From Diploscapter coronatus (taxonomy: Eukaryota; Nematoda; Chromadorea; Rhabditida; Rhabditidae), in contig OZ038422.1 in assembly GCA_964036155.1 (NCBI GenBank), positions 16,825,201-16,889,200 of the forward strand: a stretch of DNA of 64,000 nt, in the 5' to 3' direction. The translations under genes and the position numbers were made by a program. The notes beneath the pieces were generated by a model. That model searched no databases. It was given only the letters and a program-made list of their open reading frames with translations, and was not told the origin of the DNA. This document shows, one piece after another, positions 1,043 to 32,736 of this stretch. Numbering within the stretch: position 1 is the stretch's first letter; every line of letters begins with the position of its first letter.

Positions 1043-4000
1043 CTACTTCCCACTATAAAGGGGACTCAAAGCACTGTAGTTAATTTTTTTAATTTTACAC
1101 CATTTATTCGTTTGTGGATCGTATTCCTCGATTGTGCTACACAAAATTGCAGGTATAAGGTTTCGATATCTAAATTAACAAATACTTTGTATAAAGATGT
1201 GAAAATCTCAGCTCACCCTCCGACTGCATATAATTTCTCGTTAGCGACAATGAGCGAATGATCCTTTCTTTCATAATTCATATCAGCGATTTGAGAAATT
1301 CGACTGTCAACTGGAGCTGAGGGATCGAAACACAGACAGAATTTTAATACATCACAACCACTAAATATATAATGATACATTATATATCATACAAAATTAA
1401 TGACTTCCATCCTCCAGTTATGTAAATTCTTCCATTTAGCGATATAACTCCGAAATCAGCTCGTCCTTCTGAAATATGTCCAATTTCAATCCACTTCCGT
1501 TCATCGTCTGACAACTGATATATCTTTCTACTTTTACGACCATCAATAACTGAACATCCATAATTACAACAATTAATATGCTATAATGTGACCGTATAAA
1601 ACTCCATCGCATGTTACTGTTCGAACTTGGCGAATTGAAAGAGGAAAAGTAGGTCCCGTTTGCCATTTTCCATCTATTAGAACCTGAATAAATTATTTCA
1701 TGAATTTTCAAATGGTCGTCTTACATCCACACGATCTGTCAATCTTCCCCTTTTAGAACTGTGTCCACCCAAATAATACAATTTGCCTTTGAAATAAACG
1801 ACAGATACATATTTACGCCATTCAGGAGGATTCGGACCTGTAAAATTATTTGAATCGATCATTCATGGATTGGTTGATAGGACCTATTGAAATTTGCCGA
1901 GTGTTCAAATCATATATTTCAAATGATTTATCTTCGTTGCTAATTGCAAAAATCTGTAATTTGAGAAATTATTCAAAATAACGAGCATAAGAGTTTACTT
2001 TATTCTGTGTAGGTGCTACTTCATATGGCTCATAACAATTGTGAAATCTTGCAATCTCTTCTACTGAGAAGGTATGTGAATTGAACAAGCATATCCTTCC
2101 TTCATTTTTATAATGACTTCGATAATGAACTAAATTATTACGAATCGTCTCAAAGTCTCTTATTTAGCTTTTATCATAAATTCTTACGATAAAACAGGAT
2201 TTTATGCGAACTATCGAATAAGTTGTCTCCACCAATTTGCAAATTATTGATATCCCAGGGTAATTCATTCATTGTGTTGTTAATCAATGGGATTTGATTT
2301 TTCTTCTAGAATATTTTGTTTAAATATTAGCAGTATAATAATTTCTACTTCGATGGCATCAGCCAGAATAGCTGCCCCAAATACGACGGCTTCATCAGGG
2401 TTGATATTGAATCTTAATTTTTCCTTTCTAAATTTCATTTCCAAAATATTCCTTATCGCAGGAATCCTTGTGGACCCGCCAACCAATATCTGAATAAATA
2501 ATTTAAGGAAAATATTTTCGATCAGAATGGAGGGATTTTTCGTGATTATTTACCACGTGATCGATGTCATCTGTCCTAAGATTAGCCATTTTAATCGTCT
2601 CATCAATTAGCCTGGATGTTCTTGTGTAAAGCTCCTCGCATAATTCATCAAACTTTGGCCTCGTTAATTGTACACTTAAATCCAAATGATCATCTGAACC
2701 GATATTCAGCTGAATGTTATAATTCACTACTTCAACTATTATTAATAATGCTAACATGAATATTATAAGAAGAAGCATCGAATGAGAGTGCTTCTTTTGC
2801 CAATCTGCACTCGGCCCTTAGCCGTTTAACCAAACGCTTATCTCCAAAAATATCATTATTCGATAATTCCGTATATTCTCGTGATGCATAGTTCATAATT
2901 ATTCTATCAAAATCCTGGCCACCTATTATACAAATTCAGGCATATTATGAAAAGAATATTAAATGTGACCTTACCTAAATGCTCATCTCCATGAACTGCT
3001 TGTATAGCAAGTTTTCCGTTTTTAATTTTGCAAATGCTAATGTCAAGTGTGCCTGAAAGTTCATTGATATAACTGTTCGGTTATTTGTTTTTAAGTGACG
3101 ATTATTCACCTACCTCCTCCGAAGTCGAATATCATTATGTTTGAATCCTCTAACTTCTTGTCTTCATTGTACGCGATCGCAGCGGCTGTAGGCTCTTTAA
3201 CTAGCATCTTTAACTCGAGTCCAGCCATTTGAACAGCCCTTTTCGTAGCCTCTATTTGTTCTTTCTGAAAGAAGGCCGGAATCGCGACAACAGCTCCAAT
3301 CACTTTATCACTAATGTAATTCTAAACTTCGTTTTACTGGGATTTCATAGATTTCACTTTCCAAACCTCAGCTATTTGTTTGATCTTCTTTAAAATCTCT
3401 GCGGACACTTCCTCTGGTGTTATAAATACCTCATTCAAGGCGTCATTATCGTACTTAATAACGTATCCAACTTTGTCCTAAAGGATGGATAAAGATAATC
3501 ACATTTCAACTGAAAGCACGTATTCAAAATGCGAAACTAACATCTCGTGTATCCAAATTGAATGTCCATAGTGAGCGATTCTCGGCAATAGGCAGACGAT
3601 AAATAAATCCCCAACCGAGAAGCCTTTTTGAATCTACAAAATCAATCCAAAAATAAGGTAGCACTTTGGATATTATTGAGTTCGAAATCTGGGAGGTCGA
3701 AAATGAGGAGAGAACGAATGATTTTAGTTAGTCTCATATTTTCAATAGAAACAGTTTCTTGACAAAAGTCACTCAATCAAATGCGAATTTTCAAAAAGAA
3801 TCATGTACCACTTTCACTTTCCGGATACGGAAAAAAGAATACAAACCGTATAGAACTCGTGAGAGATCAGGATAGTTGAGTGCATGGTTGCCGACTAATA
3901 TTTCGTTATTATCTCCATATGATACAATTGATGGTGTAAAATCTTTGCCTGAGCATAAATTACGATGAAAAGAATGTATAGGGATTTCATAATTGACTTA

Positions 4001-4092
4001 CCTTCTTCATTAAAAATGATTTTAGGCCTTCCATTTTCAACGATAGCAACACATGAATAAGTCGTTCCCAAATCAATTCCGATATAGACCAT
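1043..4092 (-). CDS. Hsp70 ATPase domain fused to Kelch propeller, copy 1
   Basis: The predicted protein joins an Hsp70-type nucleotide-binding domain to Kelch repeats. The first exon starts [13 protein letters not shown] (Hsp70 signature 1). Later exons give IMIFDFGGG (signature 2), [13 protein letters not shown], and [13 protein letters not shown] (signature 3). A short linker containing LQIGGDN leads into Kelch blades such as [16 protein letters not shown] and EKLYAVGG with the [11 protein letters not shown] motif. Introns are short, many near 43 bases, so stops in a simple reading disappear when they are spliced. The usual Hsp70 substrate-binding domain and lid are absent. The C-terminus (ending ALSPLYSGK) differs from the sister copy at 16409 and stops about 30 bp from a MITE. 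The protein should bind and hydrolyse ATP, while the propeller could select a partner; that role is inference. Copy 1 keeps the standard EPTAAAIAY segment, which copy 2 has altered. Exons of this copy were not summed base by base. Confidence 0.8.
2223..2531 (-). repeat. Inverted repeat, identical block 2, left arm
   Basis: This segment appears identical in reverse complement to 17940-18248. It covers the exon with Hsp70 signature 3, the following intron and the linker. The flanking exons of the two genes differ at many positions, so the identity is patchy rather than general. Confidence 0.8.
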
Positions 4093-4920: not shown

Positions 4921-7900
4921 TTAGTTTATTTTAATTTCTTCGATTTCACGCCATTCATTCATTTGTGGGTCGTATTCCTCGATTGAATTGCAAAAATTTC
5001 CATATAAAAATCTGTGAAATCCAAGTTAGTAAATACTTCGTATAAAGATGTGCAAAATCGCAGCTCACCCTCCGATTGCATACAATTTCTCGTTAGCGAA
5101 AATAAGCGAATGATCCTCTCTTGTATAATTCATATCAGCGATTTGAGAAATTCGATTGCCAACTGGAACTAAGGGGTCGAAACACAGACAGGATTTTAAT
5201 ACTTCACCACTAAATATGTAATGATACATTATATATCATACAAAATTAACGACTTCCATCCTCCAGTTATGTAAACTTTTCCATCTAGTGATGCAACTCC
5301 GAAAGAACCTCGTTCTTCTGGAATCTCTCCTACTTCAATCCATTCCCGTTCATCGTCTGACAACCGATATATCATTTTACTATGAAGTCCATCAATAACT
5401 GAATATCCATCATTACAATAATGAATATGCTATAATGTGACCGTATAAAACTCCATCGCATGTTACTGTTCGAACTTGGCGAATTGAAAGAGGAAAAGTA
5501 GGTCCCGTTTGCCATTTTCCATCTATTAGAACCTGAATAAATTATTTCATGAATTTTCAAATGGTCGTCCTACATCAACTTGATACGTATCTATCTCTGT
5601 TTTAGGATTCTCTCCACCCAAATAATACAATTTATCTTTGTAATAAGCCACAGATGCACCATTACGCCATTCACGAGGATCTGGTCCTATAAAATTATTC
5701 GAATCGATCATTCATGGATTGGTTGATAAGACCTCTTGAAATTTGCCGAGTGTTCAAATCATATATTTCAAAAATTTTCATAAATGGGTCAATTGCAAAA
5801 ATCTGAAATTTGAGAAATTATTAAAAACTAGCCGGCCCGCCTCCAGCCGGCTAGGGGCTGCTTCGCAGCCCGCGTTTTTTTACTTAAATGGAAATTATAT
5901 TAGCGTAATTTCTTGATTCGCCTTCACCAGTTCGTATTACGACACTTCTAAATTAACTTGTGAAAATTCGTTCAGCGAAACTTGCGTCTTGAAACGTATT
6001 TTACTGCACATTCATAACTGCTATCCTTCACCATTGGAAAAAAAACTATTTTTGAACTCTGGTGACTTGTGTTCATGCATAATAGCCCTTTCAACGTTAG
6101 CGGAAAATCATTGAACTTATTTTCTACAAATTTACCGTGAGAGCAGCAAGAATCATACGTATTACTTTTTGACTTATACTCATCTGCAAAATGTAAACTT
6201 TTACACGCACTATATCCTTTATCTCTATCTCCCGATGAATGCTTTTCTATGTTTTCGTTATTGACAACTAAAAGTTTCGTTTCTTGTTGTACGTTGTGTG
6301 GCGTTTCTTATAGTCAGCTTTTTCAACATCACTTTTCCTTTTTCTACCTTTTTTCTGGAGCATTCGTTGACAAATTAGCGATAGATGGGGATAAACTTGA
6401 AACGTTTGACATATTTCTTTGATCTGGACGTAAAGTATCGGAAGTCGTGAATCGTAAAATTTGGCGGACAGGGACAACTATCATTGCTCAAAATTTTCGT
6501 AGTGTAATAGCATACAAATGCTTCACGACTAACGCCATCATTTTGTCTGGCAATTTCTTGATCACTTTTGGCCATTAGCATTGAATGAACGCCTGTTACG
6601 ATTTCGCATATTTCTTGACATAGATCATAAACGTAGTTCGAAATATTCATAAAAAAAGAGCCGTAGTGATACATTTCGAGAGTTTCGAAGTTAATCGTAC
6701 ATAACGTAAAGTGGATTCTATTTTGATCGAAAATTGGAACAAATAAAATCCTACATCCGTTGAAAATCGTAGCATTTGCAGTTATAAATAGAAGGGCCAA
6801 ACGGTTTTTCAAAATAGGTTGAATTGGGTAAATCTGATATCAGTGTGATGGCCGAGATCGGTACAAACTCAAAACTTTAAATTTGCAAAAACGGTCCATC
6901 CTATCAAAAGTTATGATCATTTTTGTGCGGCAATTCGTTCTTTCAGTGGCCTTCCCAATTTTTTCCGACAGAGAAACTGCACTGCGTTTACACCAATTAA
7001 CCTAATTAGACGTGAAACCCCTCAAAATGGTATCTAAATGATAGTAAAATAGATAATTATCATTATCAATCGATTTCCCCTTTTCTCACTCCATATTTGC
7101 GTGTACTGTGGGGAGTACACAATTAAATAGTACGAAAATCGACGTTCAACAAAAGGAATTTTCGGAACCGATGTGGACCTTTGTGATGACCTAAGTTAAC
7201 AAACTGTTAACGCAGATAAACTAAATCGACTATGGAGAATTCGTTGGAAACCTTTTGAAAAGTGACCTGTATCGCGAGATCCTACGTCGTTCATGCCTTC
7301 AGAAAGGCCTTTTTCGAAAAAAACCAACGACATCATCATTTCGGGCGTATTTTATTTTATCCTAATTGGTGTCTTAGTTTCATGAAATTATCAACTAATT
7401 AACGGAATAATTAACAATAATTGAAACGTCGGAAAAATTCATGCATTCTTTCTCTCCCTCAAAAAGGGGACGCTTGGCCTCTAATTATAAAATCTCGAAC
7501 ATACTGTAAGTAATCATCTTGAAGCGTAAAGAAATGATAATGAATCATTTGCCAAATCGTCATATCTACATAAGAAACTGTCTCATGATGAATTTGATTG
7601 TACTCGTGGACTTTAAATCTAACAAATCGTTGACCGTCATGTCAAAAAACATAGTATTGGAACATAAAACTTCGTTGTACTTGTCGTTATTCGCGGTCCA
7701 TACTTTACTATCAATTTTACCTTTTTCCTCGGCGCTCGTCCCCAACTCAATATCATCGTCATAACTAAAAAGGACAACGTTGGCAGACTTGGGACTTTTT
7801 TAATTTGGTTGTCGCACCGCAACTCAATTTCCTCCATCGCACCACAGGAGTAGACTACCGCAACCGCACCGCACCGCGGCTGCGATAGGAAAGTCCCAAA

Positions 7901-10900
7901 TCTGAACGTTGGCTCTTTTGAGACTCACCAGAAGAGAACGAAGCAGGTCAAGAAATAGCTTACTTTCAAATCTTCAACAACTAAACTGAGCATATGCTAA
8001 TTCAACACATGAAAGGGCGAAAAAAATTACGCTGAACGAATTTTCAAAATACCGATACAAATTTAGCATATCAGGCCGTCGAAAATTTCGCACTCCATCA
8101 TTTCTCGAGACGTCCTGACTCTGTATAGAGAAAGGGACACGCAGTGTGGGGTCGTGCATAATAATGAAATGAAAGACTTCTTCTCTCATGAAATGAAACT
8201 TGATACAAAATTAGCATGTTAACGCATTAACGTTCACTTGAATTAATTGTGGTTCATTCTACTTTTATAATATAGAAGATAGATAACGAACATAAGAACT
8301 TACTTTATTCTGTGTAGTTGCTACTTGATATAGCCAATAATAATTGTTGAATTTTGCAATATCTTCGATTGAGCAGGTATATGAATTGAACAGGCCTACT
8401 CTTCCTTCATCTTCATAATTATTATTTCGATAACAAACTAAATTATTACGAATCGTTTCAAAGTCTCTTATTTAGCTTTTATCATAAGTTCTTACGATAA
8501 AACAGGATTTTATGCGAACTATCGAATAAGTTGTCTCCACCAATGTATAAATTAATTTTTCCGATTTCACCCCATTTGTTCGTTTGTGGGTCGTATTCCT
8601 CGATTGAATTGCAAAAATTTCCATTTAAAAATCTGTAAAATCCAAGTTAGCAAATATTTCGTATAAAGATATGCAAAATCTCAGCTCACTTCCCTCCGAT
8701 TGCATACAATTTCTCGTTAGCGACAATGAGCGAATGATCCTTTTTTTCATAATTCATATCAGCGATTCTAGAAATTCGACTGTCAATTGGAGCTGAGGGA
8801 TCGAAACACAGGCAGGATTTGAATAGACCATCATCACTAAATATGTAATGATACATTATATATCATACAAAATTAACGACTTCCATCCTCCAGTTATGTA
8901 AACTTTTCCATCTAGTGATGCAACTCCGAAAGAACCTCGTTCTTCTGGAATCTCTCCTACTTCAATCCATTCCCGTTCGTCGTCTGATAACCGATATATC
9001 ATTTTACTATGAAGTCCATCAATAACTGAATATCCATCATTACAATAATGAATATGCTATAATGTGACCGTATAAAACTCCATCGCATGTTATTGTTTGA
9101 GCATCATCAATTGGAAGAGGAAAAGTAGGTCCTGTTTGCCTTTTTTCATCTATTACAACCTAAATTAATTATTTCATGGACTTTCATTTGATCTTTTTAC
9201 ATCAACTCGATTCGTATTTTTGCTTTTTTTAGAATCCCATCCACCCAAATGATACAATTTGTCTTTGAAATAAGCGATAGATGCAGCACTACGCCATTCA
9301 GGAAGATTTGGTCCTGTAAAATTATTTGAATCGATCATTCATGGATTGGTTGATAGGACCTCTTAAAACTTGTCTAGCATTCAAATCATATATTTCAACC
9401 GAGTTATCTTCGTTGCTAATTGCAAAAATCTGTAATTTGAGAAATTATTCAAAATAACGAGCATAAGAGTTTACTTTATTCTGTGTAGTTGCTACTCCAT
9501 ATGGAGTAGAATTATTGGTGAATTTTGCAATCCCTTCGACTGAGAAGGTGTGTGAATTGAACAAGCATATCCTTCCTTCATTTTTCCAATTATTATTTCG
9601 ATAACAAACTAAATTATTACGAATCGTTTCAAAGTCTCTTATTTAGCTTTTATCATAGTTTCTTACGATAAAACAGGATTTTATGCGAACTATCGAATGA
9701 GTTGTCTCCACCAATTTGCAAATTAATTTTTCCGATTTCACCCCATTTATTCGTTTGTGGATCGTATTCCTCGATTGAATTACAAGTTAGTATAGAACCT
9801 TTTTGAGACCTAAATTAACAAATATTTCGTATAAAGATATTCAAAATCAGCTCACCCTCCGATTGCATACAATTTCTCGTTAGCGACAATGAGCGAATGA
9901 TCCTTTCTTTCATAATTCATATCAGCGATTCTAGAAATTCGACTGCCAGCTGGAGCTGAGGGGTCGAAACACAGACAAGATTTCAATACACTAAAATAGT
10001 TAAATATATAATGATACATTATTTATCATACAAAATTATAAACTCCTCTCCTCCAGTTATGTAAATTTTTCCATTTAGCGATGCGACTCCGAAAGAAGTG
10101 CGTCTTTCTGAAATCTCTTCAATTTCAATCCATTCCCGCTCATCGTCTGATAATCGATATATCTTTCGGCTACCCCATTCAAATTGAGTAATAACTGAAT
10201 ATCCATGATTACAATAATAAATATGCTATAATATGACCATATAGACTTCCATCGCATGTTATTGTTTGAGCAGTACTAATTGGAAGAGGAAAAGTAGGTC
10301 CTGTTTGCCTTTTTCCATCTATTAGAACCTGAATTAATTATTTTATGGACTTTCACTCGGTCTTCTTACATCAACTCGATTCGTATTTTTCTGTGTTTTA
10401 GAATCCCATCCACCAAAATAATACAAGTTGCTTTTGCAATAAGCGACAGATGCCCGTTCACGCCATTCAGGAGGATTCGGACCTGTAAAATTATTTGAAT
10501 CGATCATTCATGGATTGGTTGATAGGACCTCTTAAAACTTGTCTAACATTCAAATCATATATTTCAAATGATTTATCTTCGTTGATAATTGCAAAAATCT
10601 GTAATTTGAGAAATTATTCAAAATAACGAGCATAAGAGCTTACTTTATTCTGTGTAGTTGCTACTTGATATGGAGCAGAATAATTGGTGAATTTTGCAAT
10701 CCCTTCGACTGAGCAGGTATGTGAATTGAACAAGCATATCCTTCCTTCATTTTTATAATGATTTCGATAACAAACTAAATTATTACGAATCGTTTCAAAG
10801 TCTCTTATTTAGCTTTTATCATAGTTTCTTACGATAAAACAGGATTTTATGCGAACTATCGAATGAGTTGTCTCCACCAATTTGCAAATTAATTTTTCCG

Positions 10901-12140
10901 ATTTCACCCCATTTATTCATTTGTGGGTCGTATTCCTCGATTGAATTGCAAAACTTTTCCCATATAAAGTTATCTTTTTCTTTAAATCTAAGTTAACGAA
11001 TATTTCGTATAAAGATATGCAAAATCTCAGCTCACTTCCCTCCGATTGCATACAATTTCTCGTTAGCGACAATGAGCGAATGATCCTTTCTTTCATAATT
11101 CATATCAGCGATTTGAGAAATTCGACTGTCAACTGGAGCTGAGGGATCGAAGCACAGACAAGATTTCAATACACTAAAATAGCTAAATATATAATGATAC
11201 ATTATTTATCATACAAAATTGAAAACTCCTCTCCTCCAGTTATGTAAATTTTTCCATTTAACGATGCAACTCCGAAATGGGTTCGTCCTTTTGGAATTTC
11301 TCCAATTTCAACCCATTTCTGTTCATCGTCTGATAATCGATATATCTTCTCATTATCTTCTCCATCAATAACTGAATATCCATAATTAAAACAATGAATA
11401 TGCTATAATGTGACCGTATAAAGCTCCATTGCATGTTATTGTTTGAGAAAATTCAATTGGAATAGGAAAAGAAGGCCCTATTTTCCATTCTCCATCTATT
11501 AAAACCTGAATAAATTATTTCATGGGCTTGCACTCGGTCTTCTTACATCAACGTGATTTTTATTTCTTGATCCAGAACTCCATCCACCCAAATAATACAA
11601 TTTGTCTTTGAAATAAGCCACAGATGCCCATTTACGCCATTCACGAGGATCTGGTCCTATAAAATTATTCGAATCGATCATTCATGGATTGGTTGATAAG
11701 ACCTATTGAAATTTGTCGAGTATTCGAGTCATATATTTCAAATGATGTATATCTGCCGTTAATTCCAAAAATCTGAAATTTGAGAAATTATTAAAAATAA
11801 CGAGCATAAGAGTTTACTTTATTCTGTGTAGTTGCTACTTCACATGGTAAATAATAATTATGGAATTTTGCAATCTTTTCGACTGAACAGGTATATGAAT
11901 TGAACAAGCATATTCTTCTTTTCTCTTTACCATTATTATTTTGATAACAAACTAAATTATTACGAATCGTTTCAAAGTCTCTTACTTAGCTTTAAATACA
12001 ATTTCTTACAGTAAAACAAAATTTCATGCGGATTATTGAATGAATTGTCTCCACCAATTTGCAAATTATTAATATTCTGGGCTAATCCAGTCACTGTATT
12101 ATTAATTAATGGGATTTCAATTCCTTTCTGAAATTATTAT
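4921..12140 (-). CDS. Tandem Kelch-propeller array protein
   Basis: Four consecutive ~1.17 kb cassettes on the minus strand each encode the same ordered set of Kelch segments: an ICLFNS segment, [15 protein letters not shown], a GP.PPEWR...YYLGG blade, [24 protein letters not shown]...ITGG, CFDPSAP...LYAIGG and IEEYDPQ.NKW. The last exon ends EWREIEEIKIN before a stop at 4921-4923. Splicing of ~43-50 base introns keeps the parts I checked open, so this could encode four tandem beta-propellers, roughly 1,150 residues. The first cassette keeps the same linker (IPLINNT...[11 protein letters not shown]) that follows the Hsp70 domain in copies 1 and 2, so it probably descends from an Hsp70-Kelch gene. 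No Hsp70 sequence is visible upstream of 12140 and no start codon can be assigned, so it may be 5'-truncated or a pseudogene. A Helitron sits inside an intron of cassette 4. Confidence 0.65.
5828..5871 (-). repeat. Helitron 3' terminal hairpins
   Basis: Two adjacent palindromes: CTAGCCGGC...GCCGGCTAG at 5828-5854 and GGGCTGCTTCGCAGCCC at 5855-5871. They are strikingly GC-rich within AT-rich surroundings. A hairpin before a terminal CTRR is the standard Helitron 3' signal. Confidence 0.85.
6375..6812 (-). pseudogene. Ulp1-type (C48) cysteine protease fragment
   Basis: A 145-residue open frame inside the Helitron. The segment ILFVPIFDQNRIHFTLCTIN followed by YHYGS resembles the His and Asp part of Ulp1/SENP peptidases (pattern H(W/F)TL...ID...YDS). 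The later segment RQNDGVSREAFVCYY fits the catalytic N-D-x-x-(D/S)-C-G-x-F-V-C-x-Y pattern. In that alignment the nucleophile Cys is Arg (CGT) and the next Gly is Glu (GAA), each one base change away. The copy is therefore probably inactive as a protease. Ulp1 genes are carried by several eukaryotic transposon groups. The family assignment is by eye. Confidence 0.5.
8537..9707 (-). repeat. Kelch cassette 3
   Basis: Third cassette of the array, 1,171 bp from one CCACCAATTTGCAAATT-type boundary to the next. Blades include [19 protein letters not shown] and EKLYAIGG. Its boundary to cassette 4 reads CCACCAATGTATAAATT. Confidence 0.75.
9708..10873 (-). repeat. Kelch cassette 2
   Basis: Second cassette, 1,166 bp. 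Its blade 3-4 region is distinctive (SVITQFEWGSRKIYRLSDD and ISERRTSFGVASLNG), while the outer blades match cassettes 1 and 3 closely. Confidence 0.75.
10874..12140 (-). repeat. Kelch cassette 1 with Hsp70-type linker
   Basis: First cassette, 1,177 bp from boundary to boundary plus the linker. The linker exon (IPLINNTVTGLAQ...LQIGGDN) is homologous to the exon joining Hsp70 and Kelch in the two fusion genes, including its acceptor site. This links the array's origin to a fusion gene. Confidence 0.75.
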
Positions 12141-14137: not shown

Positions 14138-15451
14138 CAGGGTGCGTCAAAAGTTCGGAGACAATATTTAATGACCGTGTAAACGGCAAGTATATATTCA
14201 AATGAACCAAATTTTTGATAATTACTTTATTTAGAATTTAATAAGGGATTATGAGTTAGAATTTTCCGATAACATCGCCTTTGGCGCTGATGCAAGCCTT
14301 CAGACGGCGGGGCCACGCATCGACGGCCTTGCAGAGATAGTCGAGGTCAAGCTAGTCCCAGGCTTTCGTAAAAGCTCGTTTGAGGAATTCCAAAGTAGTG
14401 TGGGATGTCGAACAAGCCTTTTTCTGTAAATCATTCCAGATTCTATAATCCAGGGATTCAAACCGGGGGAATGGGAGACCGTTGAGAAGAGTCGATGAAA
14501 TCCGGTATATTTGCGTGGCACCATTGTTGCACGGATTTGGCCTTGTGGGCGAGGGTGGAGTCTCGTTGATAAGTCCAGGAACGTTGTCTGAGGTTGGTTT
14601 GGGTCCAAGAAAGGAGAATATCCTCGAAAATCGCATCTTGGTAGATTTCTTTGTTGATTTTTAGTCCTTTCTTAACGAAGGTCAATGGCGATTTTTCGTC
14701 CGAAGTCGCGACTGTTCAAACCATCACAGATTGGGAATGAGTCTTCCTTCCAATGTTTCGACCACTCGAATTGGTAGCAGAGACATCTGGAGCAATAATA
14801 CAGTCGTTTTGACGGTTGATGGCAGCTTTCACAGTGAAGCACAGCGAAGAATTTCTCATTGTTGAACACAATAGTCGAATGCGTGCCAGCAGAAAATCGT
14901 TGCAGCAACTGCTTACATCTTTGAACCCGTACGAGCATATCTTTGGGAGTCAGGTCGTAAAAGTTTTAGAACTTGTAGGGTATGAGCTTGAGGTTTTTTC
15001 TGACAATTAAACGGGCGGCTGTGTGATTGATGTCCAGGTTTTGAGTCATTTTCCGGATTGACCTTTTGGAATTTTGCTTGATTCACATCCTGATGAGTTT
15101 CTTGGCTCTGGTGACGTTGAAAGTTTTCGGATGGCCGGAACGAGATCTGTCAGAAATAGAGCCAACCTCCTTGAATAGTTTGATGTGGCGTGAGACCACT
15201 TATCGCAACTTTTTGAGCAGCCGAGTGGTTGTTTCATTGCTATATTTTTGCTTGTGCAACTCGATGACTGCAGTCCTTAGTGTTTTCAGGCTCGCCATCC
15301 TTCAAAAATACAATAAAAAGTCATAAAAAGTATGTCTATAGGTAGAATAAATAACGAGGAATGATAAAATAAAAAAAGAAAAAAATTGAAAAACAATGAC
15401 ATTGCTGTAGTTTACGGTGTAAATTTGTCTTCGAACTTTTGACGCACCCTG
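14138..15451 (-). mobile_element. Tc1/mariner element
   Basis: A 1,314 bp element with terminal inverted repeats CAGGGTGCGTCAAAAGTTCG and, at the other end, CGAACTTTTGACGCACCCTG. TA dinucleotides at 14136-14137 and 15452-15453 are the expected target duplication. It sits directly against the left end of another MITE at 15452. Confidence 0.9.
14260..15302 (-). pseudogene. Decayed mariner-type transposase
   Basis: Pieces of a transposase appear in different minus-strand frames. A helix-turn-helix N-terminus starts MASLKTLRTAVIELHKQKYS near 15300. A central piece contains RFSAGTHSTIVFNNEKFFAV, where active copies usually have a DEK motif. A C-terminal piece contains DSTLAHKAKSVQQWC and LKRAFTKAWD followed by DAWPRRLKACISAKG. 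Stops and frame changes break it, so it cannot make a full transposase. The piece order and lengths match a Tc1/mariner transposase of roughly 340 residues. Confidence 0.85.
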
Positions 15452-15736: not shown

Positions 15737-16886
15737 TTTATTAAAATGGATGAAAATTTCTTACTTACTCTTTTCCTTCTGAGCTTGTTTCATCTGGATG
15801 CGAGATGATATTTTGGATGGCATTCGAAATTGAGCAGATTATTGTTCAACCAATTAAAATCTCTTCATTTGTTTATTTCTAATCCCTAACCATTTATTGA
15901 AATTATTAATTTTATGATGAGATTCTTTCTCGCAAAACATTCGAATCGCTATTCTCTTATCAATTCTCATTCAATGTAAAAGCTTGCTCCTAATGTGTGC
16001 CAAAATGGTAACACATTTCTTCCTTCAATTCTTTTTCTTCACTATTTCTCTGGACGGCTTTCCTCTTTTTCTCGTTTTCTCTCGTTTTCTCTCGTGCCCA
16101 CTTTTCTCTCCCTTTTCTTTGTGTTAAGAATTGTATCGCGGTTGAGCGGTTTCTGTTTTTGTTAAAATTGTGACTGCGATCGAGCGGTCTTTGATAGCGT
16201 TATAATAAACCTATGTGTCAGTAAATGTGTTCTTGTTAATTCCGCTTTATACTAACCAACCAACAACTAGCCACAGAAGGGTCACTCTCCCCAGAGAACC
16301 TTTTTGTTTATAATGATTATTGTTTTTTTATTCATTTACGCATGAATGCAAGATTTATTTATTTCCTAAATCAGTATATTTTTAATTTTAAAAATTAAGA
16401 AATCAAAAATGGTCTATATCGGAATTGATTTGGGAACGACTTATTCATGTGTTGCTATCGTTGAAAATGGAAGGCCTAAAATCATTTTTAATGAAGAAGG
16501 TAAGTCAATTATGAAATCCCTATACATTCTTTTCATCGTAATTTATGCTCAGGCAAAGATTTTACACCATCAATTGTATCATATGGAGATAATAACGAAA
16601 TATTAGTCGGCAACCATGCACTCAACTATCCTGATCTCTCACGAGTTCTATACGGTTTGTATTCTTTTTTCCGTATCCGGAAAGTGAAAGTGGTACATGA
16701 TTCTTTTTGAAAATTCGCATTTGATTGAGTGACTTTTGTCAAGAAACTGTTTCTATTGAAAATATGAGACTAACTAAAATCATTCGTTCTCTCCTCATTT
16801 TCGACCTCCCAGATTTCGAACTCAATAATATCCAAAGTGCTACCTTATTTTTGGATTGATTTTGTAGATTCAAAAAGGCTTCTCGG
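15737..16886 (+). repeat. Inverted repeat, identical block 1, right arm
   Basis: Reverse complement of 3615-4764, identical as far as read. It covers the whole upstream region, exons 1-2 and introns 1-2 of the plus-strand Hsp70-Kelch gene. The left boundary abuts a MITE end. Confidence 0.9.
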
Positions 16887-19430
16887 CTGGGAATTTATGT
16901 ACCGTCTGCCGATTGCCGAGAATCTCTTATTATGGACATTCGATTTGGATACAAGAGATGTGCTGAATTTATTTTTACTTGTAATAAAAATATAATATTT
17001 AGGGTTCAGTAGGCTATGTCCTGGATAGAGACACTGCGAAAGAGCGATTTATTTTGCCGGAAGAGGTGTCAGCTGATATTCTACGAAAACTTAAATTGAT
17101 CGCAGAAGTTCGATATTTAAATAATACCTACTTAGCATTTATCTCTTAGACTTACACGGGGAAACCAATAACAGGGGCTGTTGTCGCGATTCCGGCCTTC
17201 TTTCAGACAGCTCAAATAGAGGCTACGAAAAGAGCTGTTCAAATGGCTGGACTCGAGTTAAAGACGCTAGTTAAAGAGCCTATAGCCGCTGCAGTCGCGT
17301 ACAATGAAGACAAGAATTTAGAGAATTCAAATATAATGATATTCGACTTTGGCGGAGGTAGGTACATAATCATCATTTGAAAACACAATCGAACAGTTGT
17401 ATCAATGAACTTTCAGGCACACTTGATATTAACATTTGCGAAATTGAAAACGGAAAACTCGCTATAAAAGCAGTTCATGGAGATGAGCATTTAGGTAAGG
17501 TCACATTTAATATTCTTTTCATAATATGCCTAAATTTTCATTTTATTAGGTGGCCAGGATTTCGATGGAATAATAATGAAATATGTAATACAAGAATATA
17601 TGGAATTATCGAATAATGATATTTTTGGAGATAAGCGTTTGGTTAAACGGCTAAGGGCCGAGTGCAGATTGGCAAAAGAAGCGCTCTCATTCGATGCTTC
17701 TTCTTATAATATTCATGTTAGCATCATTAAAATAATAGAAGTAGTGAATTTTATAATTCAGTTGGACATCTATTCATATTGCCATTCGGATTTAAATGTA
17801 CAGCTAACGAAGATAAAGTTTAATGAATTATGCGGGGAGCTTTACACAAGAACATCCAAGCTAATTGATGATACGCTTAGAATGGCTAAACTTAAGAGAG
17901 ATGGCATCGATCACGTAGTAAATAATCACGAACAACCCTTCCATTCTGATCGAAAATATTTTCCTTAAATTATTTATTCAGATATTGGTTGGCGGGTCCA
18001 CAAGGATTCCTGCGATAAGGAATATTTTGGAAATGAAATTTAGAAAGGAAAAATTAAGATTCAATATCAACCCTGATGAAGCCGTCGTATTTGGGGCAGC
18101 TATTCTGGCTGATGCCATCGAAGTAGAAATTATTATACTGCTAATATTTAAACAAAATATTCTAGAAGAAAAATCAAATCCCATTGATTAACAACACAAT
18201 GAATGAATTACCCTGGGATATCAATAATTTGCAAATTGGTGGAGACAATTTATTCGATAGTTCGCATAAAATCCTGTTTTATCGTAAGAAATTATGATAA
18301 AAGCTAAATAAGAGACTTTGAAACGACTCGTAATAATTTAGTTTGTTATCGAAATAATAATTATAAAGATGAAGGATGGATATGCTTGTTCAATTCACAT
18401 ACCTTCTCAGTCGAAGAGATTGCAAAATTCAACAATTATTATGCTCCATGTCAAGTAGCAACTACACAGAATAAAGTAAACTCTTATGCTCGTTATTTTG
18501 AATAATCTCAAATTACAGATTTTTGCAATTAGAATATCTGAGGAGTCATTTGAATTTTTTGATTTGGATACTCGACAACTTTCAATAGGTTTTATCAACC
18601 AATCCATGAATGATCGATTCAAATAATTTTACAGGTCCGAATCCTCCTGAATGGCGTGAATGGGCATCTGTCGTTTATTTCAAAGGCAAATTGTATTATT
18701 TGGGTGGAAAGGATCCTGAAACACAAAAAAATACGAATCAAGTTGATGTAAGAAGATCGAATGAGAGTCCATGAAATAATGCATTCAGGTTTTAATAGAT
18801 GGAAAATGGCAAACAGGACCTGCTTTTCCTCTTCCAATTAGTACTGCTCAAACAATAACATGCGATGGAGTTTTATACGGTCACATTATAGCATATTCAT
18901 TATTGTAATGATGGATATTCAGTTATTGATGGACTTCATAGTAAAATGATATATCGGTTATCAGACGACGAACGGGAATGGATTGAAGTAGGAGAGATTC
19001 CAGAAGAACGAGGTTCTTTCGGAGTTGCATCACTAGATGGAAAAGTTTACATAACTGGAGGATGGGAGTCGTTAATTTCGTGTGATAAATAATGTATCAT
19101 TATATATTTAGTGATGATGGTCTATTCAAATCCTGCCTGTGTTTCGATCCCTCAGCTCCAATTGACAGTCGAATTTCTCGAATCGCTGATATGAATTATG
19201 CAAGAGATGGCCATTCGCTCATTGTTGCTAACGGGAAATTGTATGCAATCGGAGGGAAGTGAGCTGAGATTTTGCATATCTCCATCCGAAATATTTTTTA
19301 ACTTAGATATAAATATATTGAGGAAGAAATTTATGTTTTCTATCATAAGATAAAATTCTGTGACGCTATTGAAAAATACGACCTACAAACGAATGAATGG
19401 AGTGAAGTCGGAAAAGTTGACATAAAATAA
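16409..19430 (+). CDS. Hsp70 ATPase domain fused to Kelch propeller, copy 2
   Basis: Seventeen exons sum to 2,079 bases, an open frame of 692 residues. Exons are 16409-16499, 16553-16654, 16868-16959, 17003-17107, 17150-17357, 17417-17494, 17550-17716, 17762-17914, 17982-18122, 18166-18283, 18342-18475, 18519-18588, 18635-18747, 18789-18879, 18923-19067, 19112-19258 and 19307-19430. Residues 1-379 form an Hsp70 nucleotide-binding domain with IDLGTTYS (5-12), IFDFGGGTLDI (~193) and [10 protein letters not shown] (~333). Residues ~380-418 are a linker. Residues ~419-692 carry about six Kelch blades ([35 protein letters not shown]). No substrate-binding domain follows. Most introns in the 3' half are 41-58 bases. 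EPIAAAVAY replaces the usual EPTAAAIAY, so ATPase activity may differ from copy 1. The product is expected to be cytosolic, since no signal peptide is seen. Its biological role is unknown. Confidence 0.85.
17940..18248 (+). repeat. Inverted repeat, identical block 2, right arm
   Basis: Identical to 2223-2531 in reverse complement (309 bp), in the middle of otherwise diverged gene sequence. It carries Hsp70 signature 3 and the Hsp70-Kelch linker. Confidence 0.8.
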
Positions 19431-21984: not shown

Positions 21985-23680
21985 TTACACACACTTTTTT
22001 TTTCGAATAAAGCATGGACTAACGTCTCTGAAGGCTTTCACGTAATAGATGATCACAATACAGTCGCAGATGGGGAATAACGTTACCGCGGTAATCACCG
22101 CGTTATTTACTGTTACTCTAAAATTTCGATTCTTCACCAAGTAACATGAAATAGTGATACCTGGAAACCTCGAAGGGCATCAAGGGTAGCGAGAAAGTGG
22201 CCCAGCAGGGGATGTAGGCGAGAAACAGAGGGACCATCGCCTAAATCAAGTTATTTCCGATAATAATTATTCTCCATTTCAATAAAACAATTCATGCGAT
22301 TTTGTCGAATTTGTAAAGTACACCTAGACGCACTCACAAATAATATCTCGTTGCGTGCGCCTTTTCCATTTTGTTGGAGATAATAGAGTATTTCTGAAGA
22401 CTTGCCCATAAAGAAATTTTTTAAATAGTAAAAAGACGCATGAGCCGTTTCTTTGAAATGAAGGGTATTTGCTGAACAATTATAATATAACACTAGTTCT
22501 TTCTGCATTGGAAAAGAAATCCTTATACTCCAAAGTTGAAGCTTACTTTTTCATAAGTGCATTTATGCTCTAGGTGCAACTTGCTAAAATTATATTCATA
22601 CTTGAATTACGAGGGCTTTCAGTAGCGATTTCTGCAGAGCTCGTGTCGAGGAGCTAAGCATCGTTTCGAACTTGTTCAAAGCTTTTTGGCTTTTGTACCC
22701 GCAGTAGATCATTACAGTAAACGTCACGGACTAAATAAATTTATCGTTTTTATTATTTTTTTAATTTGACGAAATTAATTGCCTCGAGGATGAATAAATT
22801 TATAATTCCGGACAAGTTTTGATAGTTGATTTGTATCGTGTCGTTGTTTGAAAGCTAAAAATTGTGAAATTTTCGATAAACCTCGATGCATGTCATAAAA
22901 CCCAATAAACAGGCGAAACGAATCCCAAGTTTCGCACTGAAATGTTGAAGTCCTCTTGTATAGCGTCCTCGAGAAAATCGTACGTCTAGAATACTGTTTT
23001 TGTAAGAAAATAAAAAAAATTGAATACAGTCTCCGTCGGATACATTGTGAACCAACAAGTTAATGAATAATCCAGACTGCCTAGGGCGACTACGACAACC
23101 CAAATCCACGCGTATTTCAGGGTGAATAAGTACATGTACTTCACACTGTAATTCATTATAAGAATTGGAATCATTAAAAATCCTTGCTTGGTTATTGACA
23201 GATATCGATAGAAGAAATGGATTGCCAGCAGTAAGAATGACATAGAGAAGAATGCATTCCAAAGACAGACTCCAAAGACGCCGATTGGAGGTGGATATGA
23301 CAATAGGCCGCCTGAAGAAAATACAACGAACGCTGATTTGTAAGCGTAGACTCCCTGAAATTTTGATCGCATAAAAGCGACTTTCAGGCCTTGATCACGT
23401 GACCATAATCAAGATTTGGAGGCATCCCAAGACAGCTTTTAGCGTTACTTACGGGTTTGATAATGACATCCAGTAGACTGTAAGAGATATCGAAGCAGAC
23501 GAATGCTAGCACCACGTATTTGTAATTACCCATTTTTTGGTGGGGTCGGCTGAGAATTATATAAACAAGTGTACCATTGGCCAGCACCGAGATAGCACAA
23601 CCGATATACGTCTGATAGTAATGTAGGGGTGTGATAAACAACGAGTAGTGCCCATTTGCGTCGACTTGAGACATCCACAT
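21985..23680 (-). CDS. Str-family seven-transmembrane chemoreceptor
   Basis: Six minus-strand exons (23453-23680, 23028-23354, 22902-22985, 22602-22730, 22161-22240, 21985-22117) sum to 981 bases, 326 residues. The order and motifs fit the nematode Str class of chemosensory GPCRs. TM1 contains IGCAISVLANGTLVYIILSR. TM2 contains YKYVVLAFVCFDISYSLLDV. A short stretch GVYAYKSAFVVFSSGG follows, with LLLAIHFFYRY in TM3. TM6 reads VTFTVMIYCGYKS and LQKSLLKALVIQ, and TM7 MVPLFLAYIPC. The tail FPICDCIVIIYYVKAFRDV is the typical Str C-terminus. All introns fit GT-AG and the frame stays open. TM5 looks short, so a small exon in the intron between 22730 and 22902 may be missing. It would act in the membrane of sensory neurons. 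The ligand is unknown. Confidence 0.85.
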
Positions 23681-24890
23681 CTTGAAACTTTCGTCCAGAA
23701 CTGGAATATAGCTGGGTACAGTAAATATAAATTCTGAAGAGAATCAAATTGTAGCACTTCGCTACACTTCGTCTATTTATGAAAAACCATCCCACATATG
23801 AATACAAATTCCAATAGAAGATAAAAAAAAAAAAACCCCCGTCAAGATCCCACTTTTTTGAATTTGATTTCACACTGGATTAAAGTAATCTTCAAATTTC
23901 TTGCTTTAAGAATGCATTATGGCTAAAATTATCTGCAATGTTTTAGTCTTTTATTTTCAAACATTTCTAAGTGGAAAATAACAATAAGTTGGCGGGAATG
24001 AAATAGGCGAAATTTGGATCTTTCTGTGGATTAGGTGAGAGGAAAATAAAATGAAACTAAAACCGTGTATTTTGCGTGTGCTATTATAAAATTGAAATGA
24101 TTATAATATTTGCAAACTGTTATAGCCACTATTTTAGCTCATTGTAATCAAAATAGTTGAACGTTGGAAATGCCCTACGAAGAACGTATCTCGTTGTAAG
24201 AAGCGTACATATGTATGACTAATGTAGGTCGGCTAATACAGAATAGAGCAGAAATAGATTACAAGACAGCACAGATACAGTGACAGAAAGCAGAACAATG
24301 ATAAAACAGCAGTGAAGAAAACAGCTCAATTCCAGTCTAACCCGAGTGATTATGGCCTATTCATTCCCAATTTTGTGCCTTTATGAATTTTCAAAGCTTT
24401 TCTAATGTGCAAATCTAGTATCAAAAACCAATCCCATGTTTCATTTCTTTCCATATTCAGCATCAGCTCCTTTCCATTTCCATTGCCGGGGAATTTTCTA
24501 AACCCACAATACTAGATCAAACTCCACTGCAGAGAGAGCAGTAATGAACTCTCACATCCATTAATTTTCACGCATTCAACTTAGATAAGATAGTAAAGAG
24601 AGGCGAAATAGCGAATACTGTCGGTAATGAGCTCTCGAACATTTTGAAAATTTCGTTATTGAAATTAGCATGTCATAGTTTTTGGCCCTAAGTACCCAGA
24701 AATTAGATCAAAAGTCATCGGAAAAGTTACGTTGCACAAGATGCAACTGAGACTTATCAAACGGTGTATCATACATGGACATATGATAGACAGGTGGTTA
24801 GAAATAAGCTCGGACACAGGCAGACAGACACGCTTTACAAACATACTAAAAAAATTAAAGAAGGAGATTCCTAAACATGGTTTATCATTT
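23681..24890. other. Upstream of Str receptor, no gene seen
   Basis: AT-rich. It contains the presumed promoter of the minus-strand receptor. No exon-like open frame with a recognisable domain on either strand. Confidence 0.5.
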
Positions 24891-25330
24891 AAGACGCATT
24901 CTTTGAGTAGCCAGAACAAAATATAAAGAATGGTCGGACAATTGCAAAAGTGTCTCGGATCCGGACCAAACTCATAGGTGAATACATTCATGGACCCTAA
25001 TCACAAAAATGGGGAGACCAGGTCCTGCTCCCTCAAGTGGGCGGAGCTAGGTGGGGGTCAAAGTTGGAAGTTTTGACGATTTGACTGTAAACAAGGAGTA
25101 CAAAGAAAACTTTTTTGTTATAAAAGATTTTCGAAGAATTTAAAAAGGATGAGCATAGCCATGCAATGTACTTTCTAAAAATATATAGGTTTGGAGAGGT
25201 CAGACATTTACTGGAGGGCGGGACCTGATCTCCCCATTTTTGTGATTAGGGTTCATGGGTGTATCCACTATACAAGTTTGGTTCGAATCCAGGACACTTT
25301 AAAGTTGTTCTGTTTATTCGCGGAATGGTT
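24891..25330. repeat. MITE, second family, copy 2
   Basis: Left end AAGACGCATTCTTTGAGTAG. Inner arms are ACCCTAATCACAAAAATGGG and the complement CCCCATTTTTGTGATTAGGG, flanking an unrelated middle with a GGTCCTGCTCCC / GGACCTGATCTCC pair. The right terminus is degraded. Related to 15452-15730. Confidence 0.75.
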
Positions 25331-26011
25331 TGTTTTTCTTCAGTATCACAAGCCTTTCAAATGGAAGGCTACCAAACTTGAAAAGTTTTCAGGAATCATA
25401 GCAAATTTTTAAATGAAAATTATAAACCTGGAAAATTCCTGGGTCCAGATTTTATCAATTCCTCCTGCCCCGTTTCATTTTCTGTCATCCAGCAATTCCT
25501 GCCTCATTCTGGCTGCAGCTACCTTCCACTTCAGGCAGCAGTCTCGTCATCTCGAGCAAATCAAGCTAAAAATTGGAAATTTGGTGGAAAAAAAACAAGA
25601 AAATCGAGCGAAAAACGATGAAAATGCAAAAAGTAAAAGCAAGTGTCGATGAATGAGCAAAGTGGCCACAGCGCGATTACCGTATTCGTCTGCATTCAGG
25701 CCGGTTGCTCATTTCATTTCCTCTCGCATTCTTTTCGTGAATTTTTTGATATACTGCAAAATTTTCTTCGGATTTTGCCGACGTTGCACTTCGGAGGCGT
25801 CATCCTCGCACGATGAAATGAATCCTCATGAATTTCTACCCCTTCGCTTTTTAGTTGCTCATTTTTGGGCCAAAAGACTTACTTGAATTTTCGTGTTTTC
25901 CTTTCCGCCTTTAAAAGTTTGTTTTCAAATTTCAGACTCAAAAGCTTCCTCAGAAGAGTCCAACACTCATCCATCCGTATATCCAGTCAGTTCAGTCAGC
26001 CCAGGCATCCA
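25331..26011. promoter_or_regulatory. Upstream region of the Argonaute gene
   Basis: A pyrimidine-rich stretch at about 25440-25540 precedes the gene. An acceptor-like TTTCAG at about 25929-25934 lies roughly 80 bases before the chosen start codon and could be a spliced-leader acceptor or the end of a 5' UTR intron. Confidence 0.4.
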
Positions 26012-31448: not shown

Positions 31449-32736
31449 ACGACTGAATGGACTCCCCCTCACACACACAGTTGATTCCCCTACAACCCCA
31501 TACTCCAATCTGCAAATCAACAAATCAATTTATAAGTCAAAGCTCTTCTCCCTACAATATTCTTCACCATTTCATTCCATTACTCTTTTCGTTTTCCCAT
31601 CGAAACTTCGAAAATTCTGCAGGGTTAACGACTGCTACAGTGTCTGTCTAGTGGGCGTACAAAATTCCTCTCCTCGCGCCCTCTTGTCAATTAGAAGGAG
31701 TGTGGAGTATCAATGAAGAAAATATATCCCCACGCCCACTCGACTTTAAATTTGTCGCAAATCTTGATGAATTTTCAATTTCGATTGTTATTTTTTGTTG
31801 TTGTTCCTTTGGGAAAATCTTGTTCAAATCAATTTTTGCGTGTCAAAACTCTTGCCCCAAAATTATCCCCCATTTTATTTCATTATTTTTCACATCTATT
31901 TTTGTTGTTTTTTTAGGGAACATATTCAATTTTCCGTTTTTTACCGGGGAGTTCATTTCAATTTTTTTCAAAATATATTTCCTAAGCCTTGAGAAATTTC
32001 TTGTTTTTTCTACTGATTTCTGTTGACTTCTTTTGTTTAGAGTTAGGTAATAGCTAAATGATTTTGTTTTGAAGTGAGAACTGTTATTATTGTTTAGAGA
32101 ATAGCTAAATCTTTTTTAGTGTAAAGGTGTTGAGTAATTCCGTTGTTCATGATTTTCATATCATGGCTTTTATTTTTATCGTTTTTCTTCTGGTGTTGTC
32201 TGTTACTAAAGTAAAGTTTTTTTAAAAGAAAAATCATCTATATTTTGATCATACAGAAAATCCTTGACAACTTGGGAGGAAGTATCTTATATTTTTGCAA
32301 AAAAAATTATTTTTCGAAGTAATCATTTTAGGAAATGTGGATTCATGAAAAAATATCCATCAAAGATTTTCCTGTCAGAAAGGAAATGTGTTAAAATTTC
32401 AAAGTTTCGGCAAATGGAACTTGATATTCTTTTCTGCGCCGAGAATTGCAATAAGCCGCCCATTCTCTTCTTCTCTCTTCTCCAGCATTGTATCTAGCGA
32501 TCTCTCGCCTTTTCAATTCCTCGCTTTTTCAAGTTTCGCATTGGATTTCTTCAATTTCTGTTGATAATTGCCGAATATAATTACCATGATTATCAATAGT
32601 TTGCACCCTACCACCCCATACCAAATTCATCCTTGAAATTTGTATTTTGCTTCCCATTCTAGGTCCTAAAAGTTTGCACATTTGCCGTCAATACTTTATT
32701 CAATTTATGTTTTTCAACTCTTCAAAATTAAGGGTG
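31449..32736. other. Argonaute 3' flank and coupling factor 6 upstream region
   Basis: T-rich on the plus strand, with several runs of TTTTT. No gene is supported. It probably holds the Argonaute 3' UTR and the promoter of the next gene. Confidence 0.5.

What the first reader, a model, noticed from the sequence alone, without database searches (positions are those of the whole stretch)
16409..19430. Hsp70 ATPase domain fused to a Kelch propeller
Seen: a 17-exon frame of exactly 692 codons before the stop, with three Hsp70 signatures followed by about six Kelch blades, and a second copy at 1043-4092 with the same layout. Known: Hsp70 couples ATP turnover to a substrate-binding domain, and Kelch propellers are adaptor domains. 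Inferred: the propeller may replace the peptide-binding domain, giving an ATP-gated adaptor or a chaperone with a fixed client. I know of no standard family with this architecture.
Basis: partly seen in the sequence, partly recalled or inferred. Interest (0 to 1): 0.92.

Follow-up and report, generated by a model that had tools for sequence, protein, structure and literature searches.

The report
Hsp70 ATPase–Kelch propeller gene family
A nematode carries a large scattered family of genes, some of which join the ATPase half of the Hsp70 chaperone to a Kelch propeller with fast-changing presumed binding loops; this may be a set of ATP-linked recognition proteins, not the heat-protection chaperones that such an Hsp70 expansion was taken for.

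Summary
The fusion is real. Gene A (16409-19430, +) and gene B (4092-1043, -) each splice from 17 exons into an open 693/694-aa protein: a complete Hsp70 nucleotide-binding domain (NBD; ATPase residues kept), no substrate-binding domain, and a Kelch propeller of about six blades. It is not a one-off: full-length NBD+Kelch models were obtained in 21 of 22 other loci fetched from this genome (9 of 22 without frameshift or stop), and relatives occur in Diploscapter pachys. Patterns find 256 NBD first exons and 1082 Kelch units in the 170-Mb two-haplotype assembly; how many NBDs carry a Kelch was not counted. Between A and B lies a four-propeller frame without an NBD. The Kelch part has hypervariable sites (pN/pS 1.56-1.82 in window units) clustered where, by motif, Keap1-type propellers bind ligands. 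The NBD is conserved (dN/dS 0.20) but lost residues that, from recall, couple Hsp70 to J-proteins and its substrate domain. A published Diploscapter Hsp70 expansion, very probably this family, was read as heat adaptation; its main text never mentions Kelch. Best reading: ATPase-linked adaptors with diversified targets. The boldest, an NLR-like recognition repertoire in a nematode, is untested; no expression or biochemical data were available.

The parts
16409..19430 (+). Gene A: 17 exons, 693 aa, Hsp70 NBD (residues 4-380) plus linker plus Kelch propeller
16409..18122 (+). Gene A exons 1-9: complete Hsp70 nucleotide-binding domain
18166..19430 (+). Gene A exons 10-17: linker (from residue 381) and Kelch propeller (about residue 413 to the end, my reading)
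15737..16408 (+). Upstream region of A, identical to that of B (part of a 1150-nt identical run 15737-16886)
1043..4092 (-). Gene B: 17 exons, 694 aa, same architecture as A
4921..12130 (-). Tetra-Kelch reading frame: four propellers, 28 GT-AG introns, 1143 aa open to a stop; no NBD recognised upstream by tblastn; first exon not found
5803..8303 (-). 2.5-kb intron of the tetra-Kelch frame (43-45 nt in A, B and the other units): looks like an insertion

Best explanation
A and B belong to a large, dispersed Diploscapter gene family in which an Hsp70 ATPase domain lacks its substrate-binding domain and carries a Kelch propeller instead. Most likely these are cytosolic ATP-binding adaptor proteins: the propeller's presumed binding face holds a target chosen by hypervariable loops, and the ATPase domain gives a nucleotide-dependent state that controls grip, partner recruitment or assembly. 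Copies multiply, exchange segments by gene conversion, sometimes gain extra propellers, and their binding sites diversify. Shown: architecture, open frames, copy numbers by pattern, NBD constraint, hypervariable sites, A/B mosaic. Inferred: that the proteins are made, the ATP cycle, its coupling to the propeller, and target binding.
For: Open 17-exon fusion twice in the window; full-length NBD+Kelch models in 21 of 22 fetched loci, 9 of 22 free of frameshift or stop in the script. PF00012 stops at profile 376-378 of 599 in 5 of 5 fusion proteins scanned. Relatives with both domains in D. pachys. D10, T13, K71, E175, D199, T204 and K271 kept in 11 of 11; R155, R171 and N174 changed in 11 of 11 (human residues in the alignment). 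NBD dN/dS 0.20. Hypervariable sites chosen from 9 genes outside the window give pN/pS 1.65, 1.82 and 1.56 (top 20, 30, 52 sites) in six window units, site-bootstrap 95% ranges above 1; 1.71 in an earlier run, other Kelch sites 0.66, intron divergence 0.087 against HV pN 0.43. 20 motif-defined contact-type positions: mean entropy 2.06 against 0.71 elsewhere, 0 of 20000 random sets reach it, zero shift is best of -24..+24. A/B: a 1150-nt identical run, with 150-nt windows elsewhere differing by up to 49%, gaps counted.
Against: No transcript, protein or biochemical evidence. The AlphaFold model of a D. pachys relative was poor (pLDDT 58.9). pN/pS on the 20 contact positions alone is 1.43 (0.90-2.58), not distinguishable from 1. 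Over the whole Kelch domain of 11 intact genes dN/dS is 0.64 and dN exceeds dS in 0 of 55 pairs. Synonymous divergence in the window units (0.25 at HV sites, 0.16 elsewhere) also exceeds intron divergence (0.087), so the intron comparison overstates the effect. The HV sites are not independent of the test set, because paralogues exchange segments. One of two loci sampled by NBD exon 1 (L043) has no recognisable Kelch in the 4.7 kb fetched.
Confidence: 0.6

Rival explanations
1. Heat-adaptation chaperones: the expansion raises Hsp70 dosage in thermotolerant worms, as published for the Diploscapter cluster (Weinstein et al. 2019).
For: PMC6872716 (passages and the Hsp70 section seen) reports a 59-gene Diploscapter cluster and links it to thermotolerance; the expanded H. 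mephisto Hsp70 genes are heat-induced there (abstract).
Against: No substrate-binding domain, and J-protein and interdomain residues changed (roles recalled). No perfect three-unit heat-shock element upstream of 23 of 23 family gene models (600 bp, 430 bp for L041) nor of A and B, but only one of four canonical hsp70 loci had one anywhere in the fetched stretch, so this control is weak.
Confidence: 0.1
2. NLR-like recognition repertoire, a special case of the best explanation: ATPase switch plus hypervariable propeller senses foreign or non-self molecules in a lineage whose model species lacks NLRs.
For: Large dispersed family, A/B mosaic and hypervariable sites at the presumed binding face; the same pattern is described for WD40 propellers of fungal HNWD NLRs (PMC12222747, passages incl. 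abstract); C. elegans lacks NLRs (PMC11260149, PMC7308585, passages).
Against: No domain N-terminal to the NBD; no infection or expression data; hypervariability also fits other conflicts; NLRs of Diploscapter itself were not searched for.
Confidence: 0.25
3. Amplified repeat family spread like a mobile element, many copies non-functional.
For: 1082 Kelch units and 256 NBD first exons; the block with A, B and the array was not found in the 9.5 kb examined at the allelic place on the other homologue; 13 of 22 loci show frameshifts, stops or a partial model in the script, which over-counts them.
Against: Open multi-intron frames in at least 9 of 22 loci, NBD dN/dS 0.20; flanking similarity ends at variable distances, not at a shared boundary.
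Confidence: 0.12
4. Two neighbouring genes (an NBD gene and a Kelch gene) misread as one.
For: Kelch-only tandem units exist and Kelch hits outnumber NBD hits; NBD without Kelch at L043.
Against: Models spanning both domains in 21 of 22 loci; an A-type short junction intron is visible in 13 of the 21 and another short one in L030 and L041 (my count); D. pachys annotation joins the domains too, though it also seems to merge genes.
Confidence: 0.03
5. Ubiquitin-ligase-type adaptors: the propeller presents targets to a ligase, the NBD replacing the BTB/BACK part as recruitment module.
For: Kelch relatives in the PDB are KLHL proteins, substrate receptors of ligases (recalled).
Against: No BTB, BACK or F-box domain reported in the 6 window and genome proteins scanned.
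Confidence: 0.1

Closest known systems
Cytosolic Hsp70 / Hsc70 (HSPA1, HSPA8)
   Same: Complete NBD with ATPase residues; best PDB sequence hits E about 1e-83
   Different: No substrate-binding domain, no DLLLLDV-type linker and no EEVD end in A or B (motifs recalled); J-contact and interdomain residues changed
HSPA13 (STCH) and HSPA12 (recalled)
   Same: Hsp70-type ATPases with a missing or atypical substrate domain
   Different: Neither carries a Kelch propeller; STCH has a signal peptide, here the NBD begins at residue 4
KLHL / KEAP1 Kelch propellers
   Same: Kelch propeller; variable positions fall, by motif, where Keap1 contacts ligands
   Different: BTB and BACK are replaced by an Hsp70 NBD; contact-type positions vary between paralogues
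Diploscapter Hsp70 expansion, 'Cluster III' (Weinstein et al. 2019)
   Same: Very probably the same family: their Table 3 lists dp_WR25_05901, the locus of NBD-family protein P0052
   Different: Described there as Hsp70 genes for heat; 'kelch' absent from the main text. P0052 itself carries no Kelch Pfam; I did not see the list of the 59 genes
Fungal HNWD NLRs (het-d/het-e)
   Same: NLR with a propeller sensor showing concerted evolution and hypervariable sites
   Different: NACHT (recalled) and WD40, not Hsp70 and Kelch; no homology claimed

Membership tests
Hsp70 chaperone | Hsp70 nucleotide-binding domain with ATPase residues | tested here: met
   PF00012 profile 2-376, E 2.5e-104; D10, T13, K71, E175, D199, T204 kept 11 of 11, D206 10 of 11, D366 9 of 11
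Hsp70 chaperone | Substrate-binding domain (PF00012 beyond about 390) | tested here: not met
   Matches end at profile 376-378 in 5 of 5 fusion proteins scanned
Hsp70 chaperone | J-protein contact and interdomain residues (R171, N174, R155; roles recalled) | tested here: not met
   Changed in 11 of 11
Hsp70 chaperone | Heat induction (heat-shock elements) | tested here: inconclusive
   0 of 23 upstream regions, weak positive control
Hsp70 chaperone | ATP-dependent client refolding | not testable with these tools
   needs protein
KLHL (BTB-BACK-Kelch) | Kelch propeller | tested here: met
KLHL (BTB-BACK-Kelch) | BTB and BACK domains | tested here: not met
   none reported at E<=1e-3 in 6 proteins
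NLR | NACHT or NB-ARC domain | tested here: not met
   none reported in 6 proteins; the nucleotide-binding domain is Hsp70-type
NLR | Variable C-terminal ligand-binding repeats | tested here: inconclusive
   hypervariable sites shown; ligand binding unknown
NLR | Immune signalling | not testable with these tools
   needs infection assays

The most novel reading that the evidence does not exclude
Diploscapter evolved an NLR-like recognition system from a chaperone: an Hsp70 ATPase switch coupled to a hypervariable Kelch propeller, in perhaps a hundred copies per haplotype (256 NBD first exons over both by pattern; the share that carries Kelch is not counted), diversified by gene conversion and selection on the binding face, some members expanding to several propellers.
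Probability: 0.25. Interest if true: 0.95.

Novelty: new variant of a known kind. Interest (0 to 1): 0.8.

Why it matters
It shows an Hsp70 ATPase domain detached from peptide binding and re-used with a different binding module at large scale. If it is the published Diploscapter Hsp70 expansion, as seems very probable, it corrects the reading of that expansion as extra heat-shock chaperones. If the hypervariable face binds diverse ligands, it offers a recognition repertoire in a relative of C. elegans, which lacks NLRs, and a natural library of re-targeted Kelch propellers.

Tried and rejected
Structure prediction of D. pachys P0049 with 13 relatives (14 sequences) gave a poor model (pLDDT 58.9, pTM 0.44); I drew nothing from it and ran no fold search. 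Heat-shock-element scan: weak control. A pattern meant to show the coupling residues in 9 database proteins found nothing in any; the human residues are those of the alignment. Trees of NBD and Kelch (11 genes) had no starred branch, so I claim no discordance from them; Spearman correlation of NBD and Kelch distances was 0.09 and 0.16 over 11 genes but 0.37 and 0.53 among the 8 closer ones, so domain shuffling stays open. Pfam found nothing for ORF 6375-6839(-), which I had thought C48-peptidase-like, and nothing above its cut-off for a stretch near 14.6-15.2 kb that I read as Tc1-like: both readings stay unproven. The spliced-alignment script mis-handles last introns of some copies (it reported a frameshift in A), so its counts of broken copies are upper bounds. 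Loci L001-L016, brought by searches, were not modelled.

Full report
Observation. Hand-made gene models give gene A at 16409-19430 (+): 17 exons, GT-AG introns of 41-213 nt, 693 codons and a stop. Gene B runs from 4092 to 1043 on the minus strand with 17 exons and 694 codons. Pfam assigns residues 4-380 of A to PF00012 (profile 2-376 of 599) and the C-terminal part to Kelch families. The best PDB sequence matches of the N-terminal part are human Hsp70 ATPase domains; a profile of six Kelch parts matches SAKe6 proteins (designed six-bladed Kelch, recalled), KLHL20, KLHL3 and KEAP1.

Organism. G000 has 169.7 Mb in three contigs, two of them 87.7 and 82.0 Mb. Hiraki et al. 2017 report a 170-Mb diploid assembly with 2n=2 for Diploscapter coronatus (PMC5483258, passages incl. 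abstract). The D. pachys protein P0055 finds its best locus here at 86-94% identity in three pieces. I infer a Diploscapter species other than D. pachys, probably D. coronatus; this is not proven.

A family, not a single gene. A pattern from the Kelch exon 16 (35 places, up to 3 mismatches) has 1082 matches with 0 in the reversed control. A pattern from NBD exon 1 (35 places, up to 3 mismatches) has 256 with 0 in the control. Both counts cover both haplotypes, and neither says how many NBDs are followed by Kelch. A spliced-alignment script gave a full-length NBD+Kelch model in 21 of 22, with 14-20 introns; the exception is L022, aligned only from residue 136. Nine of 22 have no frameshift or stop; L024 became a tenth with another query. 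The script errs at last introns, so these are lower bounds. Two further loci come from the NBD exon 1 list (2 of 8 asked for): L044 has NBD and Kelch, with two stops reported inside its last intron; L043, the best match of P0055, has an NBD without recognisable Kelch in 4.7 kb. Outside this genome, D. pachys proteins P0001-P0004 and P0049 carry PF00012 with Kelch families. Among the best 120 hits listed in each (about 8000 scored in each) and the 37, no other species showed both.

The window's third member. On the minus strand from 12130 to 4921 four Kelch propellers follow each other in one open frame of 1143 aa with 28 GT-AG introns (the last introns of units 2, 3 and 4 were set by hand). 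The junctions between units run in frame. One intron is 2.5 kb where A, B and the other units have 43-45 nt. No NBD was found upstream by tblastn with A and B, and the first exon is unknown, so this may be a gene that lost its NBD.

Selection and gene conversion. A and B are identical over 15737-16886 and 17940-18248, the latter holding the NBD-Kelch junction, while 150-nt windows between these runs differ by 7 to 49%, gap columns counted. Among 11 intact genes (55 pairs) mean dN over mean dS is 0.20 for the NBD and 0.64 for Kelch, with dS 0.955 and 0.344; dN exceeds dS in no pair for either domain. Hypervariable Kelch sites defined from nine genes outside the window were tested on six window units (A, B, K1, K2, K3, K5): pN/pS 1.71 (0.43 and 0.25) for 52 sites against 0.66 for the other 200, while introns differ by 0.087. 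Synonymous divergence is itself above intron divergence, so introns are constrained or more homogenised and the intron comparison flatters the effect. A second run, in which ties between equally variable sites probably fell otherwise, gave 1.65, 1.82 and 1.56 for the top 20, 30 and 52 sites, site-bootstrap 95% ranges 1.16-2.49, 1.30-2.77 and 1.12-2.31. Because paralogues exchange segments, the two gene sets are not independent, and choosing variable sites favours high pN.

Where the variable sites lie. I marked 20 positions by motif: the two residues after the R (or its equivalent) in strand A, and the two after the GG (or equivalent) of strand B, in five blades. Their mean entropy over 11 genes is 2.06 against 0.71 for the rest; 0 of 20000 random sets reach it; among shifts of -24 to +24 the unshifted set is best; 12 of the 20 most variable Kelch positions are in the set. 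I chose the motif after seeing the variability plot, so the test is not blind. On these 20 positions alone pN/pS is 1.43 (0.90-2.58), inconclusive; the rest of the domain gives 0.85 (0.64-1.14). Residues of Keap1 that contact a ligand include Tyr334, Ser363, Arg380, Asn382, Asn414, Arg415, Arg483 and Ser508 (PMC4506958, passages). That these fall at the two motif places within a blade is recalled. Ser363 to Arg380 is 17 residues, as is the spacing of my two motif places in four of five blades.

The ATPase. D10, T13, K71, P147, E175, D199, T204, K271 and G338 (Hsc70 numbering, recalled, placed by motif) are the same in 11 of 11; D206 in 10 of 11 and D366 in 9 of 11. R155, R171 and N174 are changed in 11 of 11; R272 is E in 11 of 11, and E268 is R in 9 and K in 2. 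That R155, R171 and N174 serve the interdomain signal and J-protein binding is recalled. I infer an ATPase freed from the usual Hsp70 inputs.

Copy-number difference between homologues. Window 24866-26800 and 29000-31496 are colinear with C2:15997657-16004400 at 81-89% identity. The C2 stretch 15986000-15995500 has no BLASTN match (E 1e-8) to the window and no tblastn match to A or B. So the block with A, B and the array is not in the 9.5 kb examined there; 2.2 kb next to the break and places further away were not examined.

What is in print. Weinstein et al. 2019 (PMC6872716; passages and the Hsp70 section seen) report a Diploscapter cluster of 59 Hsp70 genes, positive selection at its root, and a heat-adaptation reading; 'kelch' does not occur in the main text; supplements were not seen. 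Their Table 3 names dp_WR25_05901, the locus of P0052, an NBD-family protein without Kelch Pfam domains. The main text of the D. coronatus genome paper contains neither 'kelch' nor 'hsp70'. Searches for Hsp70 with Kelch (20 of 85 papers listed, 10 of 31) and for Diploscapter with Hsp70, Kelch or heat shock (5, 2 and 10 papers, all listed) showed no paper whose title or abstract start describes this architecture; the library holds open-licence papers only.

Interpretation. The architecture is near certain. The function is inferred: a nucleotide-driven module with an exchangeable target-binding propeller. The pattern of concerted evolution with hypervariable binding sites is known from fungal HNWD NLRs (PMC12222747, passages incl. 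abstract), and C. elegans lacks NLRs (PMC11260149, PMC7308585, passages); hence the bold reading of a recognition repertoire. It rests on analogy and needs expression, binding and infection data.

Noticed in passing
window 5803-8303 (-), ORF 6375-6839: A 2.5-kb stretch sits in an intron of the fourth Kelch unit; its longest ORF has no Pfam match and only reminded me of a C48-type peptidase.
   Followed up: partly
window about 14600-15200 (-): A stop-containing stretch that reads to me like a decayed Tc1-type transposase, between the Kelch array and gene A; Pfam gave no match above its cut-off.
   Followed up: partly
window 22300-24870; C1:16917562-16920111: A segment repeated at 95-97% identity about 70 kb away, beside a Kelch-unit hit at C1:16920457, and at lower identity elsewhere on C1 and C2.
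   Followed up: no
P0003, D. pachys WR25_13422: Annotated protein with kinase, Kelch and Hsp70 NBD in one chain; probably merged neighbouring genes, but worth a cDNA check.
   Followed up: no
P0042, P0052, P0059, P0004 (D. pachys): Annotated chains that read as having a second, divergent Hsp70-like NBD behind the first; real tandem domains or merged genes.
   Followed up: no
upstream of L017, L018, L019, L023, L024, L025, L033, L035, L041, A, B: A shared promoter-like block within about 100 bp of the start codon (ATTTATTTCCTAAA, then TCAGTA), while other loci have different upstream sequences.
   Followed up: no
About four times as many Kelch units as NBD first exons by pattern, so many Kelch units may lie in arrays or lack an NBD.
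   Followed up: partly
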